DNA of 64,000 nucleotides from an uncultured Aquabacterium sp. (GCF_913773725.1 NZ_CAJYGK010000016.1:124001-188000); one strand, 5' to 3'. Shown: positions 30,268 through 40,426, numbered from the stretch's first letter. Program-made: numbers and translations. The notes: a model not told the origin generated them from the sequence alone.

Positions 30268-31695
30268 ATGATGGAGGCTTCCCCGCCCGATGCTGCCGAA
30301 GCCGGCAGCTTTGAAGGCTATTTCCGCGATCCGGGCCTGGCCGCCGAACAGCCCCTGGCCTGGGCCCTGGGCCGTCGGCTCGACGCCCTTGACGCCCTGC
30401 GCGGCCTGTTCAACGGCCCGCAGGCCTTGGTGCAGCTGCGCCTGTGGTGTTTTCTGGAGTTGGCCGGCCAGCCCCAGGCGCGCCTGAGCCGCGACGACCT
30501 CAACCGCCTGTTCCACACCCTGCGCCCGGAGGCGCTCGACCTGGCCCTCAAGCGCCTGCGCGAGCTGAACCTGCTGGTGTGGGATGCCACCGCGCAGGAC
30601 CACCACCTTTCGCCCCTGGCGCAGCAGGTGCTCGCGCTGCTGGTGCCGCTGGGCACGCCGCCCGCCACCGACGGCAGCGAGGCCGACGAGGAAATGGGCG
30701 CCTTGCTGGCCCAGGTGGCCGGCGCACAGCAGCTCGGCCTCGTCAACGCCAGCCAGCTCAAGCACCTGCATGCGCAGCTGGCCCGCCTGCACGACGAGTT
30801 TGCCGAAGCCATTGCCAGCGGCTCGGAAGCCCGCCTGCGCCTGGCCCAGCCGCGCTTCGACCGCGCGCTGCAGCTCGTCGACCGTGCCGGCCAGGCCCTG
30901 ACGGCGCTGATCCGTGCCGATCACCTCGACCCGCGCCTGGAACGTGAGGCCCGCGCCATCGGCCAGGAGCAGGCCCGCCTGCTGGCCATGGCCAGCCAGT
31001 TCACCCGCGCCCTGCAGCAGGCCGACCGCCAGCGCGTGACGCTGGGCAGCACCGGCCTGACGACCTCGGACGTGCGCGCCTGGCTGCAGGGCCACCCCGC
31101 GCTGTACGAACTGCTGGGCGATGCGCTGCACACGCCCGTGCGCCCGGTCATGGTCAGCCAGCACGACCTGGTTGACGTCGCCGAAGGCGAATTCGAACGC
31201 GACCGCCCGAACGCGGGCGAGGCCGCCGGTCTGCCGCCCCCGGCCGAGGCCGCCACTGGCACGCTCGATGTGCTGAGCCTGCCCGCCGAACTCGGGGGTC
31301 TGATCGACCTGTTCGGGCGCTGGTCCGAACTGGCCACCGAGGCCGCGGCCGCCCAGGCGGCGTCCGGCGAGGCGGAGGACCCCAATGCGCCACCGCCCGG
31401 CACCCGCCCCCTGGCCGAGGCCGTGCTGGGCGGTCGCTTTGCGCAGGCCGCCTACCGCCTGCAGCTGCTGCCGCTGCTGGGCGATGCGCAGGCGCAGACC
31501 CTGAAAGGCCTGACCGGCGACCTGGCGCGCAGCCCGTGGCGCTGGGCGCCCACGCCGCGGCATGTGGCCACCGACGACGAGGCCGTGGCGCTGATCAGCG
31601 AAGGCCACCTGCGGCCCGATGCGGCCCTGCTGGCCACCGCGCCCTCCCCTGCCGCCTCGGACGCCATGCCGTCCGAGGCCCCCACCGCATCCTGA
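30268..31695 (+). CDS. Putative kleisin-like subunit of an SMC complex (MksF/JetA-like)
   Basis: 475 aa; N-terminal winged-helix-like region (RLSRDDLNRLFHTLRPEALDLALKRLRELNLLVWD), helical middle; first gene of a tight operon with an SMC ATPase. Confidence 0.6.
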   Translation: MMEASPPDAAEAGSFEGYFRDPGLAAEQPLAWALGRRLDALDALRGLFNGPQALVQLRLWCFLELAGQPQARLSRDDLNRLFHTLRPEALDLALKRLRELNLLVWDATAQDHHLSPLAQQVLALLVPLGTPPATDGSEADEEMGALLAQVAGAQQLGLVNASQLKHLHAQLARLHDEFAEAIASGSEARLRLAQPRFDRALQLVDRAGQALTALIRADHLDPRLEREARAIGQEQARLLAMASQFTRALQQADRQRVTLGSTGLTTSDVRAWLQGHPALYELLGDALHTPVRPVMVSQHDLVDVAEGEFERDRPNAGEAAGLPPPAEAATGTLDVLSLPAELGGLIDLFGRWSELATEAAAAQAASGEAEDPNAPPPGTRPLAEAVLGGRFAQAAYRLQLLPLLGDAQAQTLKGLTGDLARSPWRWAPTPRHVATDDEAVALISEGHLRPDAALLATAPSPAASDAMPSEAPTAS

Positions 31696-31703
31696 TCCAC
31701 CCG

Positions 31704-32516
31704 ATGAGCACTCTGGACGACGCGGCCCTGCTGGCCGCCGAACTGCTGGCCCGCCGATGGCTGCCGCGCCAACACCCCAAGGTCAAGCGCGCGCTGATCG
31801 ATGCCGACCTCTGGCAGGCCACGCAGGAGCGCCTGGCCCAGGTGGGCCTGCGCCTGATCGACAACCTGTATGCCGACCACGTCAGCGTGGCGCTGCTGCG
31901 CCCGGCCGAAGCCAGCGTGTTCGGCGAAGCGGGCCTCAACAGCCACAACAACATCGACCTGCCGCGCGACGCGGTGTCGCTGCTGGTGGTGCTTTGGGCG
32001 CTGATCGTGCTGCCCAAGCGCGAACGCCAGCAGGCCCGCGCCGCGAGCGCCGACGGCGAGCAGCAGAACGACATGTTCGGCAAGGAGCGCCCGCTGCCCA
32101 CCGCCGCCAGCGTCAGCCCGCTCGTGTCCTACCGCGCGCTGCTGGCCGACTTCGGCGTGCAGCTGGGCAAGAAGACCCGCATGGACGCCAACCTCAAGCG
32201 CCTGGAGAACCACGGCTTCATCACGCGCAAGGGCGAAGACATCGCCGAAGGCCCGCTGCTGGATCTGCTGCTGGATTACGACGCGCTGGCGCCGCGCATC
32301 CTGCAGGGCGCGCTGGGCGATGTGCTGGCCCAGGCCAAGCAGCTGGCCGGCGCGCTACCGTTGGCGCTCACGCAGCCCCCGCTGGAGGAGATCCCCGACG
32401 AGGACGAGCTGGCCGAGGACGCGCTGCTGGCCGCCGACGCCCCGGCGGCCATCGATGCAGCCCCGACAACAGGCTCACCCGATGAGCCTGCCGCCACCCC
32501 TGACACCCCGGCCTGA
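31704..32516 (+). CDS. Putative winged-helix accessory subunit of an SMC complex (MksE/JetB-like)
   Basis: 270 aa; FGVQLGKKTRMDANLKRLENHGFITRKGEDIAEGPLLDLLLDYDAL wHTH-like segment; 8-nt and 5-nt gaps to its neighbours. Confidence 0.65.
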   Translation: MSTLDDAALLAAELLARRWLPRQHPKVKRALIDADLWQATQERLAQVGLRLIDNLYADHVSVALLRPAEASVFGEAGLNSHNNIDLPRDAVSLLVVLWALIVLPKRERQQARAASADGEQQNDMFGKERPLPTAASVSPLVSYRALLADFGVQLGKKTRMDANLKRLENHGFITRKGEDIAEGPLLDLLLDYDALAPRILQGALGDVLAQAKQLAGALPLALTQPPLEEIPDEDELAEDALLAADAPAAIDAAPTTGSPDEPAATPDTPA

Positions 32517-32521
32517 TCGCG

Positions 32522-35347
32522 ATGTTTCACCTGCAAAGCCTTGAACTGCTGCACTGGGACTACTGCCAGCGCCTGACCCTGCCGCTCGACGGCGCCATCA
32601 TCACCGTGGCCGGGCCCAACGGCTCGGGCAAGACCACGCTGCTCGATGCCATGCGCACGCTGCTGGGCCTGGATTGCTCGGGCGGCCGCAACTACAAGAC
32701 CTACGCCCGCCACGCCAACGCCGACAGTGCCTGGCTGCGCGCCACGGTCGACAACCGCCCGCGCAACCGCCAGTCGAGCAACCGGCCGTTTGCGCGCTGC
32801 CTGCTCTACAGCGACGTCGTCACGCTGGTGTGCCGCATCGATCGCAATGGCGGCGACTGGACGCGCCGCTACCTGATGGTCGAAGACGACGTCAGCATCG
32901 AGCAGCTGATCGAGCGCGGCAGCCCCGGCGACCGCGACTGGCTGGGCATCGACAACTGGCGCAAGCGCCTCGAAGGCGCGGGCCTGTCGCGCGCCATCGC
33001 CAAGGTGCTGGCGCTTGAGCAGGGCCAGACCGACCGCCTGTGCGAATACAGCCCGCGTGAACTGCTGCGCCTGGTCTTCGACGTGTTCGGCGACCAGGAG
33101 GTGCTGGACCGCTACGACGAAGCCCGCAACCACCAGAAGCAGCTGCTGCAGGAAGTGGAAGCGGCCGAGCGCGAGCTCTCGCACGGCAAGGCCCAGCGCG
33201 CCGAGCTCGAATCGCGCGTGAACCTGTTCCGCCAGTACGAGCTGAAGTGCCACGAGCGTGAAACGCTGGCCACCGAGGTGGTGCCCGTGCTCAGCAGCCA
33301 CGAAACGCGCAGGAGCCTGGCCACCAAGCTGCGCGACCTGCACCGCCAGCGCCTGCAGTCCAGCGCCGACCGCCGCGCCCACGGGCAAGTCAAGGCCGAA
33401 CTGCTGCAGCGCCTGCAGGACCAGACCGACGCCGCCGCACGCGTCGAGGCCATCGAAGCCCAGGTGCGCACCGCCCGCCGCCTGCAGGAAGAAGCCCGCG
33501 ATGCCGAGCGCCCCATCGAGGCCCTGGTCAAGCGCGCCGACGAGCTGGCCGGCCTGGCCGTGGTCGAGGGCGATGCCGACAAGCTCACGCTGCGCATCAC
33601 CGAACTGAGCGAGCACAAGCAGAAGCTCTCGGCGCAATGGCAGCGCCTGAAGGACCAGCGCGACGACGCCCAGCGCGCGTACGACGCCCTCAAGGGCCAG
33701 CGACAGGCCCCGCCGCCACCCGACGTCAGCCGCTTCACGCGCACGCTGACCGAGGCCGGCATCGCGCACCACCTGATCGCCGACATCATCGAGATCACCG
33801 ACGAGAAGTGGCGCGCCGCGGCCGAAGGCGTGCTGCGAGGCAGCCGCTGGGTGGTGGTGCTGGCCAACCCGCGCCAGGAGGCTCAGGCCATGAGCCTGGC
33901 CGAGAAAGAGCGCTACCGCCACTACATCGTGGCCGATGCCGAAGACGCGCCCGCCAAGCCGGATGCCGAGAGCCTGCTGGCCGTGCTGAAGTTCAGCGCA
34001 CCGGCCCCGCGCTGGTTGCTGCACCAGCTGGAGAACATCCAGCGTGTGGCCAGCACCGAAGCCGGCGTCAAGCTCAAGGGCGAGTGGATCACGCCAGAGG
34101 CCTATCACCGCGATGGCCGTGGCGGCCGCTCGGTCTGGGTCGACCCGGGCCAGCACCAGTTCGGCGCCTCGGCCGTGGCCGCGCGCCGCGCGTCGATCGA
34201 AGCCCGCCTGGCCCAGCTCGATGAAGACATGACCCGCGTGGTGCGCGACCAGGCCTTCTTCGACCGGCAGTTGCAGGATGCCCGCAAGGCCACGCAAGGC
34301 TTCACCGCCGCGGCCGAGCTGGCCGAGCGCGAGGCCGAGTTCAGCGAAGCACGCCGCCAGCTGCCCATGCTCAAGCAGGCGCGCCAGGAAGCCGGCGAGC
34401 GCTGGCAGCAGGCCGAGGCCCAGCTCAAGCGCGCCGTGGTCGAGCAGACCAACGCGCAGCATGCCTACCGCCAGGCCCAGGAGCGACTCGCCCACATCGA
34501 GCAGCGCAGCGCCCAGCACGAGCGCGAATGGCAGGTTCGCTTCGACGACGTCATGGCCCAGGCCGTGATGGCGCGCGAGGTCAAGCTCTCGCTGCCCGCC
34601 GCGTGGCGCCGCCCGGCCCGCATCGCCGACATGCAGGCCCACTACGGCAACGCCACCCAGGCCCGCCTGCGCGCCGAGGCCGTTGAGCGCGAACTGAACG
34701 AAGGCCAGTGGGAGACCGATGGCACCGTGATCGAGCAGCTCACGCTGATGAACGCCAACGTGCTGCGCCAGGAAGACGAGCTGGGCCAGCGCAAGGCCAG
34801 CAACGTGGCCGCCGGCATCGCGGTCGACAACGCCCGCGCGCGCTACACCGACGTGCTCAAGGCCACGGTGCGCCGCTACCGCAAGAACATCATCGAACTG
34901 GGCCAGCTGGCCGGCGTGGAAGTCAACGCCGAACTGCCCCACCTGGATGGCGACGACAGCGTGCTGCGCCAGGCCGAGCTGCGCGTGCACTTCAACTTCG
35001 ACGGCAAGGGCGCCATCGGCCTGAACGACGGCGAGGCCTCGGGCGGGCAGCAGGTCATCAAGTCGCTCATCCTGCTGGTCGGCCTGATGAAGGACGACGA
35101 GACGCCGGGCGGCTTCGTCTTCATCGACGAACCCTTTGCCCACCTCGACGTGCGCAACATCCAGCTGGTCGGCCACTTCCTGCGCAGCACACGCGCCCAG
35201 TACGTGCTGACCACGCCGATCACGCACAACGTCGAGGTGTTCGAGCCCGCCGACATCACGCTGGTGACGGCCAAGAAGCCCAAGGGCGCACGCTGGGCGC
35301 CGCCGATCGGCGTGCTGCAGCGGCGCATCCCGGCCGACGTGTACTGA
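32522..35347 (+). CDS. SMC-like ATPase (MksB/JetC-like), 941 aa
   Basis: Walker A GPNGSGKTTLLDA, long coiled coils around a hinge-like segment (DEKWRAAAEGVLRGSRWVVVL), signature ASGGQQ, Walker B/D-loop GGFVFIDEPFAHLD. Confidence 0.88.
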   Translation: MFHLQSLELLHWDYCQRLTLPLDGAIITVAGPNGSGKTTLLDAMRTLLGLDCSGGRNYKTYARHANADSAWLRATVDNRPRNRQSSNRPFARCLLYSDVVTLVCRIDRNGGDWTRRYLMVEDDVSIEQLIERGSPGDRDWLGIDNWRKRLEGAGLSRAIAKVLALEQGQTDRLCEYSPRELLRLVFDVFGDQEVLDRYDEARNHQKQLLQEVEAAERELSHGKAQRAELESRVNLFRQYELKCHERETLATEVVPVLSSHETRRSLATKLRDLHRQRLQSSADRRAHGQVKAELLQRLQDQTDAAARVEAIEAQVRTARRLQEEARDAERPIEALVKRADELAGLAVVEGDADKLTLRITELSEHKQKLSAQWQRLKDQRDDAQRAYDALKGQRQAPPPPDVSRFTRTLTEAGIAHHLIADIIEITDEKWRAAAEGVLRGSRWVVVLANPRQEAQAMSLAEKERYRHYIVADAEDAPAKPDAESLLAVLKFSAPAPRWLLHQLENIQRVASTEAGVKLKGEWITPEAYHRDGRGGRSVWVDPGQHQFGASAVAARRASIEARLAQLDEDMTRVVRDQAFFDRQLQDARKATQGFTAAAELAEREAEFSEARRQLPMLKQARQEAGERWQQAEAQLKRAVVEQTNAQHAYRQAQERLAHIEQRSAQHEREWQVRFDDVMAQAVMAREVKLSLPAAWRRPARIADMQAHYGNATQARLRAEAVERELNEGQWETDGTVIEQLTLMNANVLRQEDELGQRKASNVAAGIAVDNARARYTDVLKATVRRYRKNIIELGQLAGVEVNAELPHLDGDDSVLRQAELRVHFNFDGKGAIGLNDGEASGGQQVIKSLILLVGLMKDDETPGGFVFIDEPFAHLDVRNIQLVGHFLRSTRAQYVLTTPITHNVEVFEPADITLVTAKKPKGARWAPPIGVLQRRIPADVY

Positions 35348-35380
35348 CGCGGCCACCAGCCGGCTGACGCCTCTCCGTGA

Positions 35381-35412
35381 CGAAGCCCGCGCCCTGCGGG
35401 CTTCGCGCTTTT
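35381..35412 (+). terminator. Rho-independent terminator after the SMC operon
   Basis: CGAAGCCCGC-GCCCT-GCGGGCTTCG followed by CGCTTTT. Confidence 0.75.
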
Positions 35413-35557
35413 AGGCCAGACGCGCCAGGCACGGCCCGCGGTGTCGGCCAATGCGCCCCTGCGTCGCCACGCGCAGCGCGGTCGCCCGCGTTTCCCCTGA
35501 AGGCAGTCCCGCAGGCGCCTCGGACACTCGCTCCAAACGACACCTCAGGAGCGAACC

Positions 35558-36845: not shown

Positions 36846-37514
36846 TCAGTTGGCTGCCCGCTTCACGAACACGAGCGAGGCGCCCAGCGCCATCAGCACG
36901 CCGCCGAACAGGCGATCGCGCACGCGGCGTGCCGAGGGGCGCTTCATCAGGCGCTGCAGGCCGGCCGCCACATGGGCATAGCCCAGCCGCATCACGATGA
37001 GGTCGATCACGACGCTGGTGGCTGAGCAGATGAGCAACTGCAGCCACAGCGGCCGGGCCGGGTCCAGGAACTGCGGCAGCACCGCGACCATGAAGACGAT
37101 GCCCTTGGGGTTGGTGACATTGGTGAGCACCCCCTGCGCGAAGCACACGCGCGCCGGCGTGGCCGCCGTCACCGCCATGCGCCAGGTGGCACCGGTGGCC
37201 GGCGTGTCGGCCACCACCTCGGGCTCGCGGGTGGCCGCGCGCCACTGGCCGATGCCCAGCCACACCAGGTAAGCAGCGCCGGCCCACTTCAAGGCGGTGA
37301 AAGCCTGCTCCGAAGCCAGCAGCACCGCGCCCAGCCCGACGCCCGACACCAGCAGCACGGCCACCAGCCCCACCTGCAGGCCCAGCACCCCGGGCATCAC
37401 ACCGCGCACGCCGCGCGCCATGCTGTGCGTCATCGTCAGCAAGGCGCCCGAGCCGGGCGACACCGAAATCAAGGTCATGGCCGCGACATAGGCCATCCAC
37501 ACGTGCAAGTCCAT
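36846..37514 (-). CDS. LysE/RhtB-family amino-acid exporter
   Basis: AMTLISVSPGSGALLTMTHSMARGVRGVMPGVLGLQVG and the multi-TM pattern. Confidence 0.9.
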   Translation of the reverse strand: MDLHVWMAYVAAMTLISVSPGSGALLTMTHSMARGVRGVMPGVLGLQVGLVAVLLVSGVGLGAVLLASEQAFTALKWAGAAYLVWLGIGQWRAATREPEVVADTPATGATWRMAVTAATPARVCFAQGVLTNVTNPKGIVFMVAVLPQFLDPARPLWLQLLICSATSVVIDLIVMRLGYAHVAAGLQRLMKRPSARRVRDRLFGGVLMALGASLVFVKRAAN

Positions 37515-37634
37515 GCCCGCACTCTAACCCGCCAGCGCCGGAAACGCAGGACAATGCGGGCCTGCCCGTGCGGCCCGCGCGCCTCCGCGCGACCGACACG
37601 GCGCAGCCCCCGCCGCCTCCGTCTGCCTCGCCTC

Positions 37635-39656
37635 GTGTCCACCGCCCTGCCCTCTCGCTCCGCCGCGCCCCAGATCCCCATCCTGCCTGCAGCCCCGGCA
37701 GGCAACGCGGCGCCCGGCCCGGACACTGGCACACTGAAGGCCGGGCAGCACCTCCGCGTGCTGGCGCTCATCCCGCCGATGACGCAGCTCAACACGCCCT
37801 ACCCGTCGACCGCCTACCTGACCGGCTTTCTGCGCTCGCGCGGTGTGGCCGCGTTCCAGGAAGACTTGGCGCTTGCGCTGGTGCTGAAACTGCTGTCGCC
37901 CGACGGGCTGACCCGGCTGCGGCCGCTTGCCGAGGCCGTGCCCGAGCGCCGCCGCAGCGCCACCCTGCAGCTGTTCCTGGCCGAGTTCGACCGCTATCAC
38001 GCCACCATCGGCCGCGTGATCGCTTTCCTGCAAGGCCGCGACCCCACGCTGGCGCACCGCATCAACACCCGCGGCTACCTGCCCGAAGGGCCGCGTTTCC
38101 AGAGCCTCGACAACTACGTCGACGACGAGGGCGGAGACCCGCTGTCGTGGGCCTTCGGCGCCCTGGGCCTGCAGGACCGTGCCCGGCATCTGGCCACGCT
38201 GTACCTCAACGACCTGGCCGACGTGCTGAAGCAGGCCGTCGACCCGCGCTTCGAGTTCGTGCGCTACGCCGAATCGATTGCCGCCAGCCAGCACAGCTTC
38301 GACCCGCTGGCCGAGGCCCTGGCCACCCCGCCCAACCTGATCGACACGACGCTGGCCGCGTTGACGCTGGACGCCGTGCAGCGCCACCAGCCCGACCTGG
38401 TGCTGCTGTCCGTGCCCTTCCCGGGCAGCGTGTATGCCGCATTGCGCATCGCGCAGACCATCAAGGCGCACCATCCCACAGTGCGCATCGGCCTGGGCGG
38501 CGGCTTCGTCAACACCGAGCTGCGCGAGCTGGCCGAGCCACGCCTGTTCGATTTCGTCGACTTCGTGACGCTGGACGCCGGCGAGCGCCCGCTGCTGGCC
38601 CTGCTGGAGCACCTGGCCGGCGCCCGACCCACCGAACAGCTGGTGCGCACCTTCGTGCGCGACGAGACGGGGGCCGTGCGGTTGATGCGCCACCCGGAGC
38701 CGGACGTGCCGTTCGAGCACGTTGGCACACCCACCTGGGACGGCCTGCCGTTGCACGACTACCTGTCGCTGCTCGACATGCTGAACCCGATGAACCGGCT
38801 GTGGTCGGACGGGCGCTGGAACAAGCTCACGGTGGCGCATGGCTGCTACTGGAAGAAGTGCAGCTTCTGCGACGTGAGCCTGGATTACATCTCGCGCTAC
38901 GAAGCGGCTTCGGCCGCCGAACTGGCCGACCGCATCGAGGCGATCGTGAAGGAGACCGGCCAGACCGGCTTTCACTTTGTGGACGAAGCCGCGCCCCCCA
39001 AGGTGCTGCGCGCACTGGCTCATGAACTGATCCAGCGCCAGCTCGGCATCTCGTGGTGGGGCAATGTGCGCTTCGAAAAATCGTTCACGCCCGAGCTGTG
39101 CCAGCTGCTGGCCGACAGCGGCTGCATCGCCATTTCCGGCGGGCTGGAAGTGGCCAGCGACCGCCTGCTGCAGCTGATGAAGAAGGGCGTCTCGGTGGAA
39201 CAAGTCGCGCGCGTGACCCGGGCCTTCAGCGACGCCGGCATCCTCGTGCATGCCTACCTGATGTACGGCTTTCCGACGCAGACCGTGCAGGACACGGTCG
39301 ATGCACTGGAGTACGTGCGCCAGCTGTTCGAGAACGGCTGCATCCAGTCCGGCTTCTTCCACCGCTTTGCGTGCACCGTGCACTCACCGGTGGGGCAGGA
39401 CCCGGCCGCCTATGGCGTGACGCTGCAGCCGCTGCCGGCCGGTGGCTTCGCGAAGAACGACGTGGCCTTCATCGACCCCACGGGCGTCGACCACGACGCG
39501 CTGGGCAAGGCGCTGAAAAAGGCCATCTACAACTTCATGCATGGCATCGGGCTGGACGCCGATGTGCGCAGCTGGTTCGATGTGCGCGTGCCGAAACCCA
39601 CGGTGGGGCGACACCGGATTGCCAAGGCGCTGACCCAACGCAGCGGGGGCCGCTGA
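37635..39656 (+). CDS. B12-binding-type radical SAM protein (GTG start tentative)
   Basis: N-terminal B12-binding-like fold (LVLLSVPFPGSVYAALRIAQTIKAHHPTVRIGLGGGFVN), cluster motif CYWKKCSFC, YLMYGFPTQTVQDTVDALE. Confidence 0.82.
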   Translation: MSTALPSRSAAPQIPILPAAPAGNAAPGPDTGTLKAGQHLRVLALIPPMTQLNTPYPSTAYLTGFLRSRGVAAFQEDLALALVLKLLSPDGLTRLRPLAEAVPERRRSATLQLFLAEFDRYHATIGRVIAFLQGRDPTLAHRINTRGYLPEGPRFQSLDNYVDDEGGDPLSWAFGALGLQDRARHLATLYLNDLADVLKQAVDPRFEFVRYAESIAASQHSFDPLAEALATPPNLIDTTLAALTLDAVQRHQPDLVLLSVPFPGSVYAALRIAQTIKAHHPTVRIGLGGGFVNTELRELAEPRLFDFVDFVTLDAGERPLLALLEHLAGARPTEQLVRTFVRDETGAVRLMRHPEPDVPFEHVGTPTWDGLPLHDYLSLLDMLNPMNRLWSDGRWNKLTVAHGCYWKKCSFCDVSLDYISRYEAASAAELADRIEAIVKETGQTGFHFVDEAAPPKVLRALAHELIQRQLGISWWGNVRFEKSFTPELCQLLADSGCIAISGGLEVASDRLLQLMKKGVSVEQVARVTRAFSDAGILVHAYLMYGFPTQTVQDTVDALEYVRQLFENGCIQSGFFHRFACTVHSPVGQDPAAYGVTLQPLPAGGFAKNDVAFIDPTGVDHDALGKALKKAIYNFMHGIGLDADVRSWFDVRVPKPTVGRHRIAKALTQRSGGR

Positions 39657-39737: not shown

Positions 39738-40226
39738 TCAGGCCGACTTGCGGCGGCGGGCCATCAGGCCGACCACGCCCAGACCCGCCAGCGTCATGGC
39801 GACGGAGCTGGCTTCCGGGACGGGGGGGATGTCCGGACCGACGTAGAACGTCAGGAACTGGGCCTGGGCCACCGAAGGCACAGACACCGACAGGGTGTAC
39901 GCGCCAGAGCCCAGAGAGTACACATAAGCGCCAGAAGCCGCTGGCGTGGCCGCGATGACCGTGCTGGAAGCGTCGGTGAGGGTGTGGGTTGCTGCGAACG
40001 ACAGGAACGTCACCGTCGAGGCATCCTCGGCAGCAATCGTGAACGTGTAGTCGTAATCACCCACCCCGATGAAGCTGGCCGGGGACGAGGAGGCGCCCGA
40101 GCCGGTCAGGTAAAAGGTCCCGAGGCCCAGTGTGCCCAGATTGACCGTCACAGCGGCCGACGCCGTGCCAGCCATCACGAAGGCTGCCGTGGCGGCCGCG
40201 TGCTTGATAAAAGATTTCACACTCAT
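39738..40226 (-). CDS. PEP-CTERM-type secreted protein
   Basis: Signal peptide MSVKSFIKHAAATAAFVMAGTASA; C-terminus PPVPEASSVAMTLAGLGVVGLMARRRKSA. Confidence 0.85.
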   Translation of the reverse strand: MSVKSFIKHAAATAAFVMAGTASAAVTVNLGTLGLGTFYLTGSGASSSPASFIGVGDYDYTFTIAAEDASTVTFLSFAATHTLTDASSTVIAATPAASGAYVYSLGSGAYTLSVSVPSVAQAQFLTFYVGPDIPPVPEASSVAMTLAGLGVVGLMARRRKSA

Positions 40227-40426
40227 CTTGAACTCCAGCAAAAGGTTGTTGCATTGAGACGAGCACCACCCTTGATTTAATTCGTTACTGCCTGTCAGGG
40301 CGCTCGCTGAGTGTGAATCTACGCCGCCCACTTCCCGGCACAACCCCCTAAGGGCTGAGACCCCCCTGTTCTGGTGGGTCAACCGGGGAACCTGGGCGTC
40401 TGAACCCCAGCGTGCAGGCATGAAAA

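What the first reader, a model, noticed from the sequence alone, without database searches (positions are those of the whole stretch)
30268..35347. Compact three-gene SMC/condensin cassette (MksF-E-B / JetABC-like) with no JetD/MksG nuclease
Seen: three co-directional genes with 8-nt and 5-nt gaps encode 475, 270 and 941 aa proteins. The third has a full SMC-type head (Walker A GPNGSGKTT, signature ASGGQQ, Walker B/D-loop FVFIDEPFAHLD, TTPITHN) and two coiled-coil stretches around a hinge-like segment. The first two have winged-helix-like segments, as expected of kleisin and KITE/MksE-type partners. A strong terminator follows at 35381-35412 and an MCP lies upstream, so the cassette looks self-contained. 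Known: Wadjet (JetABCD) needs the TOPRIM nuclease JetD for plasmid restriction, while MksBEF without MksG acts as an alternative condensin. Inference: this is either a housekeeping MksBEF or a divergent, possibly undescribed, SMC system. The SMC is short and the kleisin candidate is weakly recognisable.
Basis: partly seen in the sequence, partly recalled or inferred. Interest (0 to 1): 0.75.

Follow-up and report, generated by a model that had tools for sequence, protein, structure and literature searches.

The report
Wadjet-like SMC complex lacking its nuclease
Three linked bacterial genes encode a DNA-organising motor related to the plasmid-destroying Wadjet defence machine; close relatives still carry the DNA-cutting fourth gene, but this lineage and most others have lost it while keeping the motor intact, so the motor probably does a job of its own.

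Summary
In detail: three co-directional genes (475, 270, 941 aa; gaps 8 and 5 nt) encode a kleisin, a KITE protein and an SMC ATPase. Foldseek's best PDB matches are JetB for the 270-aa model (E 6e-6) and, more weakly, MukF for the 475-aa model. The 941-aa protein has a full SMC head and a hinge-like segment.

The host is Aquabacterium. The cassette occurs in 54 of 301 sampled genomes of its family and 34 of 42 of its genus.

The new finding is a fourth gene missing from the window. In a minority of relatives (8 of 57 cassette genomes; 4 of 42 Aquabacterium) a divergent JetD nuclease (PADLOC JetD E down to 4e-14; conserved TOPRIM acidic residues) directly follows the SMC gene. Its tree is broadly congruent with the SMC tree, its scattered presence needs at least 8 changes, one genome keeps a fragment, and two pairs differ by its presence or absence between conserved flanks. 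The three core genes stay under purifying selection without it.

Best reading: a divergent Wadjet/MksBEF-type subfamily that has repeatedly lost its nuclease and probably works as an MksBEF-like condensin. Identity and loss are well supported; function is inferred.

The parts
30268..31695 (+). Gene K: kleisin (MksF/JetA/MukF-like), 475 aa; N-terminal winged helix (about 52-114), helical middle (138-258), low-confidence linker (about 286-338), C-terminal winged helix (about 391-450)
   Evidence: No Pfam or PADLOC match and no convincing NCBIfam match. AlphaFold2 model pLDDT 72.5, pTM 0.38. The top 7 Foldseek PDB matches are all MukF chains (probability 0.80-0.99, but E only 0.015-0.22). Conserved in 28 aligned homologues.
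31704..32516 (+). Gene E: KITE subunit (MksE/JetB-like), 270 aa, winged-helix segments and a disordered C-terminal tail
   Evidence: 26 of 28 homologues match DUF4194 weakly (best 9.7e-5; window copy 0.0027, below cut-off). PADLOC JetB1 E 0.022. Foldseek best hits are E. coli and P. aeruginosa JetB (6e-6 to 5e-4), then Nse1/ScpB/MukE with weaker scores; model pLDDT 60.
32522..35347 (+). Gene B: SMC ATPase (MksB/JetC-like), 941 aa; N-head about 1-200, coiled coil, hinge-like segment about 395-560, coiled coil, C-head about 790-941 with signature, Walker B, D-loop
   Evidence: Pfam SMC_N 1.6e-13; PADLOC JetC1 models 5e-21 and weaker, mostly over coiled coil; SMC, Rad50 and JetC chains in PDB, including an SMC hinge (4rsj) at profile positions 348-588, E 0.0036; invariant ATPase motifs.
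35377..35412 (+). Terminator-like hairpin after the cassette
   Evidence: -24.3 kcal/mol, z -3.2, then GCGCTTTT.
35348..35557 (.). Place where relatives carry the JetD-like nuclease gene; no trace of it was found here (210 nt to the next gene)
   Evidence: tblastn with 8 JetD-like proteins finds nothing in the window; six-frame profile search finds nothing downstream of B in the window locus.

Best explanation
The cassette encodes a kleisin-KITE-SMC complex of the MukBEF/MksBEF/JetABC class. It is a divergent subfamily, poorly recognised by the family models used here, whose original operon was kleisin-KITE-SMC-nuclease (JetABCD-like). In the Aquabacterium lineage of the window the JetD nuclease gene has been lost, as it has repeatedly elsewhere, while the three core genes stay under purifying selection. 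Most likely mechanism: the SMC dimer, bridged by the kleisin and its KITE subunits, hydrolyses ATP to extrude or compact DNA loops, but without JetD it cannot cut plasmids. It therefore acts as an auxiliary MksBEF-like condensin beside the genome's canonical SMC. Shown by sequence or structure comparison: subunit classes, operon, absence of JetD, JetD in relatives, purifying selection. Inferred: loss rather than gain, loop extrusion, the condensin role.
For: Subunit classes. K and E were found next to B in every family locus with enough flank. JetD-like gene behind B in relatives, recognised by PADLOC JetD1 (best match per protein 4e-14 to 1e-9) and by DUF2399 in one member (3e-9), with invariant E270 and D319/D321. 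Full-length D in 8 of 57 cassette genomes, always next to B. Fragments in G284 in the expected order with a stop codon. D and B trees correlate (Mantel r 0.80, 0 of 5000 permutations). At least 8 changes of D presence. Conserved flanks on both sides with and without D in L022/L012 and L036/L035. Omega in 12 nuclease-less pairs: B 0.02-0.21, K 0.04-0.26, E 0-0.34. Constraint on K, E and B is about the same with and without D. A canonical SMC is present in all 31 genomes tested. P. [quoted passage not shown]
Against: The kleisin assignment rests on a moderate model (pTM 0.38) with no Foldseek match below E 0.001. Profile-profile comparison with JetA/JetB/MukF/MukE was uninformative, and so were its positive controls. 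8 of 42 Aquabacterium genomes lack the cassette, so it is not essential to the genus. D and B trees share only 4 of 8 splits, the unshared D splits being mostly weakly supported. K/E and B differ in divergence between L012 and L022, so recombination has probably moved parts of the operon. No experiment shows any activity.
Confidence: 0.66

Rival explanations
1. The nuclease-less complex is still a defence or plasmid-control system: it compacts or silences small circular DNA without cutting it (as proposed for Smc5/6 on viral circles), or uses an unlinked host nuclease.
For: Its four-gene relatives look like Wadjet; the distribution is patchy like that of defence genes (54 of 301 in the family); conserved positions of K, E and B do not change when D is lost, as if the DNA-handling job were unchanged.
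Against: No other gene is shared next to the cassette across the family; neither canonical JetD_C nor the family's own JetD is found in the window's genome; the known nuclease-less MksBEF acts on the chromosome (PMC7485682, PMC10586767).
Confidence: 0.22
2. JetD was gained repeatedly behind an originally three-gene condensin, turning it into a defence system, rather than lost.
For: Most cassettes lack D, and unweighted parsimony does not fix the direction.
Against: D tracks the SMC tree, sits in the same place even in the distant G713, overlaps the SMC stop codon in L022 and L036, and a fragment exists in G284.
Confidence: 0.12
3. The cassette is a decaying remnant of a defence operon without function.
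For: The nuclease is gone, and one genome (G432) has the SMC gene split into two frames.
Against: Low omega in all three genes in nuclease-less pairs, intact ORFs in nearly all copies, 34 of 42 Aquabacterium genomes carry it.
Confidence: 0.05
4. The 941-aa protein is a RecN/SbcC/Rad50-type repair ATPase and its neighbours are unrelated winged-helix proteins.
For: Sequence search alone ranks a Rad50 chain first in PDB (4e-6).
Against: MukF-like and JetB-like structural matches of the partners, SMC hinge match, fixed three-gene operon, JetD-like gene attached in relatives.
Confidence: 0.02

Closest known systems
Wadjet (JetABCD; MksBEFG/EptABCD)
   Same: Gene order kleisin-KITE-SMC(-nuclease); KITE model matches JetB best; relatives carry a JetD-like TOPRIM gene behind the SMC gene.
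   Different: The window has no nuclease; the kleisin has no JetA model match and the KITE only sub-threshold ones; the SMC heads form their own 100/100 clade on a long stem outside the JetC sequences sampled; the SMC is 941 aa against about 1000-1200 for those JetC.
MksBEF of Pseudomonas (nuclease-less condensin)
   Same: Three genes, no nuclease, SMC of nearly equal length (941 vs 944 aa), present beside canonical SMC.
   Different: No firm grouping with Pseudomonas-type MksB (weakly placed, long branches); the window family keeps close relatives with the nuclease.
MukBEF
   Same: The kleisin model's best structural matches are MukF; same subunit plan.
   Different: MukB is 1486 aa and its heads branch elsewhere; the window's genome also has canonical SMC.
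SMC-ScpAB
   Same: SMC head and hinge type; THN near the H-loop as in canonical SMC.
   Different: A separate, canonical smc gene is present in the same genome.

Membership tests
Wadjet (JetABCD) | SMC ATPase (JetC) with kleisin (JetA) and KITE (JetB) in one operon | tested here: met
   Operon in every family locus with enough flank; JetB-type fold, MukF-like fold of the kleisin with weak E-values, SMC motifs.
Wadjet (JetABCD) | JetD TOPRIM nuclease, the plasmid-cutting effector | tested here: not met
   Not found in the cassette or in the window's genome, though present in a minority of relatives. The window cassette is therefore not filed as a complete Wadjet system.
Wadjet (JetABCD) | Family models for JetA and JetB reach their cut-offs | tested here: not met
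   JetA: no hit; JetB/DUF4194: 17.9 bits against cut-off 32.7; K and E of distant members L083 and L084 hit no PADLOC model.
Wadjet (JetABCD) | Cleaves small circular DNA | not testable with these tools
   Needs transformation or in vitro assays.
MksBEF (nuclease-less MukBEF-like condensin) | Kleisin, KITE and short-armed SMC without MksG/JetD | tested here: met
   SMC 941 aa vs 944.
MksBEF (nuclease-less MukBEF-like condensin) | Found together with SMC-ScpAB or MukBEF | tested here: met
   Canonical SMC in all 31 genomes tested, including the window's; ScpA and ScpB were not searched.
MksBEF (nuclease-less MukBEF-like condensin) | SMC groups with characterised MksB | tested here: inconclusive
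   Placement weak and flagged for long-branch attraction.
MksBEF (nuclease-less MukBEF-like condensin) | Role in chromosome organisation | not testable with these tools
   Needs deletion and Hi-C.
RecN/SbcC/Rad50 ATPases | No kleisin/KITE partners; zinc hook or short hinge | tested here: not met
   Kleisin and KITE partners; SMC hinge match.

The most novel reading that the evidence does not exclude
This family is a natural series of defence-to-condensin conversions in progress: one distinct Wadjet-like subfamily in which the nuclease is an optional, quickly lost module, while the motor has a nuclease-independent job, kept under the same constraint with and without JetD.
Probability: 0.45. Interest if true: 0.72.

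Novelty: new variant of a known kind. Interest (0 to 1): 0.52.

Why it matters
It has been suggested that MksBEF, and perhaps MukBEF, arose from Wadjet-type defence systems by loss of JetD (PMC10586767). Here related species differ by presence or absence of the nuclease gene between conserved flanks, and the core stays constrained without it. That makes 'what does a Wadjet motor do without its nuclease?' testable with closely matched natural pairs. The subfamily also largely escapes the Pfam, NCBIfam and PADLOC models used here, so such systems are probably under-counted.

Tried and rejected
(1) Profile-profile comparison (hhalign) of the kleisin, KITE and JetD-like families with JetA/JetB/JetD/MukF/MukE references: nothing significant, but JetA vs MukF and JetB vs MukE also failed, so uninformative. 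(2) Sequence searches of PDB with the kleisin, KITE and JetD-like profiles: no useful hits. (3) A replacement effector behind the SMC gene: no gene family is shared downstream beyond JetD and species-level synteny. (4) JetD in trans: JetD_C hits in G307, G846 and G310 lie elsewhere in those genomes; G846 and G310 have a JetC-like gene beside it, that of G307 lies near gyrB with no JetABC seen. (5) Further JetD fragments behind other cassettes: only G284 has one. (6) Residues in K, E or B that mark loss of JetD: no convincing set. (7) Plasmid or phage carriage: only partial matches on two large Variovorax replicons, none in phages. (8) Genes inserted between E and B in L011, L018 and L037 were checked as candidate nucleases; by sequence they look like a TetR-type regulator and a 414-438-aa protein unlike JetD.

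Full report
WHAT IS THERE. The window belongs to an Aquabacterium genome: an uncultured Aquabacterium record carries the SMC gene at 99% identity. The ATPase motifs quoted are present and invariant in 16 homologues. A terminator-like hairpin follows the cassette. The MCP gene ends 35 nt upstream on the same strand, so co-transcription is not excluded, but relatives have other upstream genes.

WHAT THE PROTEINS ARE. The 941-aa protein is an SMC ATPase: SMC_N 1.6e-13, SMC, Rad50 and JetC chains in PDB, and an SMC hinge match in the middle. The 270-aa protein matches DUF4194 (JetB/MksE) below cut-off, as do 26 of 28 homologues. Its AlphaFold2 model is of low-moderate confidence (pLDDT 60), yet Foldseek puts E. 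coli and P. aeruginosa JetB first among 350,542 PDB chains (E 6e-6 to 5e-4), followed by other KITE proteins. The 475-aa protein has no family match, but its model (pLDDT 72.5) shows winged helix, helical middle, linker and winged helix. Its first seven Foldseek matches are all MukF; the E-values are weak (0.015-0.22), so the argument rests on the consistent top ranking and the operon context.

DISTRIBUTION. With the SMC profile, 54 of 301 genomes of the family match (26 of 141 genera), as do 34 of 42 Aquabacterium genomes. With the KITE profile, 3 genomes outside the family match in a phylum-wide sample of 349. Kleisin and KITE genes were found next to the SMC gene wherever enough flank was held, except that a few Aquabacterium have two genes inserted between KITE and SMC. 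A canonical SMC was found in all 31 genomes tested, with or without the cassette, so this is a second SMC system.

THE MISSING FOURTH GENE. Clustering the flanking genes of 62 loci gave one family that sits directly behind the SMC gene on the same strand in distant members. It encodes about 400 aa and matches PADLOC JetD models (4e-14 to 1e-9 for the best match of each of six proteins). One member exceeds the DUF2399 cut-off. Acidic residues expected of a TOPRIM domain (E270, D319, D321 in L112 numbering) are invariant in nine sequences. In L022 and L036 its ATG overlaps the SMC stop codon. In a search of 57 cassette genomes and 14 others, 8 have a full-length copy, always behind the SMC gene, and G284 has ordered fragments with a stop codon there. 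In Aquabacterium 4 of 42 genomes have it, and the window's does not.

LOSS OR GAIN. On the tree of the three core proteins the gene's presence needs 9 changes, 8 forced by supported branches. For the 11 taxa compared, the JetD-like tree correlates with the SMC tree (Mantel r 0.80; none of 5000 permutations as high), with 4 of 8 splits shared and the rest mostly weak. Two pairs (L022/L012 and L036/L035) have conserved sequence on both sides of the gene's presence or absence. Together with the fragment in G284 this favours repeated loss from a four-gene ancestor. Recombination may also play a part: between L012 and L022 the SMC gene is more diverged than K and E.

THE CORE IS KEPT. In twelve nuclease-less pairs omega is at most 0.21 for the SMC, 0.26 for the kleisin and 0.34 for the KITE gene. 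In nine matched pairs of JetD-bearing and JetD-less loci, the number of invariant columns is about equal (K 61 vs 65, E 62 vs 63, B 231 vs 242). The core is therefore probably doing work that does not need the nuclease. By analogy with P. [quoted passage not shown] This last step is inference; in C. glutamicum the nuclease-bearing MksBEFG acts on plasmids and not on chromosome folding (PMC7083940, PMC10123090).

KNOWN OR NEW. The SMC heads form their own fully supported clade on a long stem, separate from the JetC sequences sampled; the join with two Pseudomonas-type MksB is flagged as possible long-branch attraction. Several MksBEF families with distant homology are already recognised (PMC7485682, citing Petrushenko 2011, which I did not read), so this clade may overlap with one of them. 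I therefore call it a new variant of a known kind, not a new kind.

Noticed in passing
L011:6012-7909, L018:5847-7872, L037:5818-7807: Two genes, a TetR-like regulator on the opposite strand and a 414-438-aa protein, are inserted between the KITE and SMC genes of the otherwise tightly packed operon in some Aquabacterium; the cassette's genes stay intact.
   Followed up: partly
L022, SMC protein about residues 600-780: This stretch is only 57-77% identical to the nearest relative L012 while the flanks are 83-100%, suggesting recombination or rapid change next to the JetD-bearing end of the operon.
   Followed up: partly
G432:C63:8898-11700 (L172): The SMC gene is split into two frames, possibly a decaying copy or an assembly error.
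   Followed up: no
L103:9999-10868 (G307): An Aquabacterium with the nuclease-less cassette has a separate JetD_C-type gene near gyrB without JetABC neighbours.
   Followed up: partly
NZ_LR594690.1:542580-544502 and NZ_LR594663.1:180817-182181: Parts of the cassette lie on two large Variovorax replicons listed as plasmids, each matching only about half of the SMC protein in one piece.
   Followed up: no
window 39738-40421, strand -: A protein ending in a PEP-CTERM-like sorting signal (VPEASSVAMTLAGLGVVGLMARRRKSA), near a radical-SAM-like gene (37425-39656).
   Followed up: no
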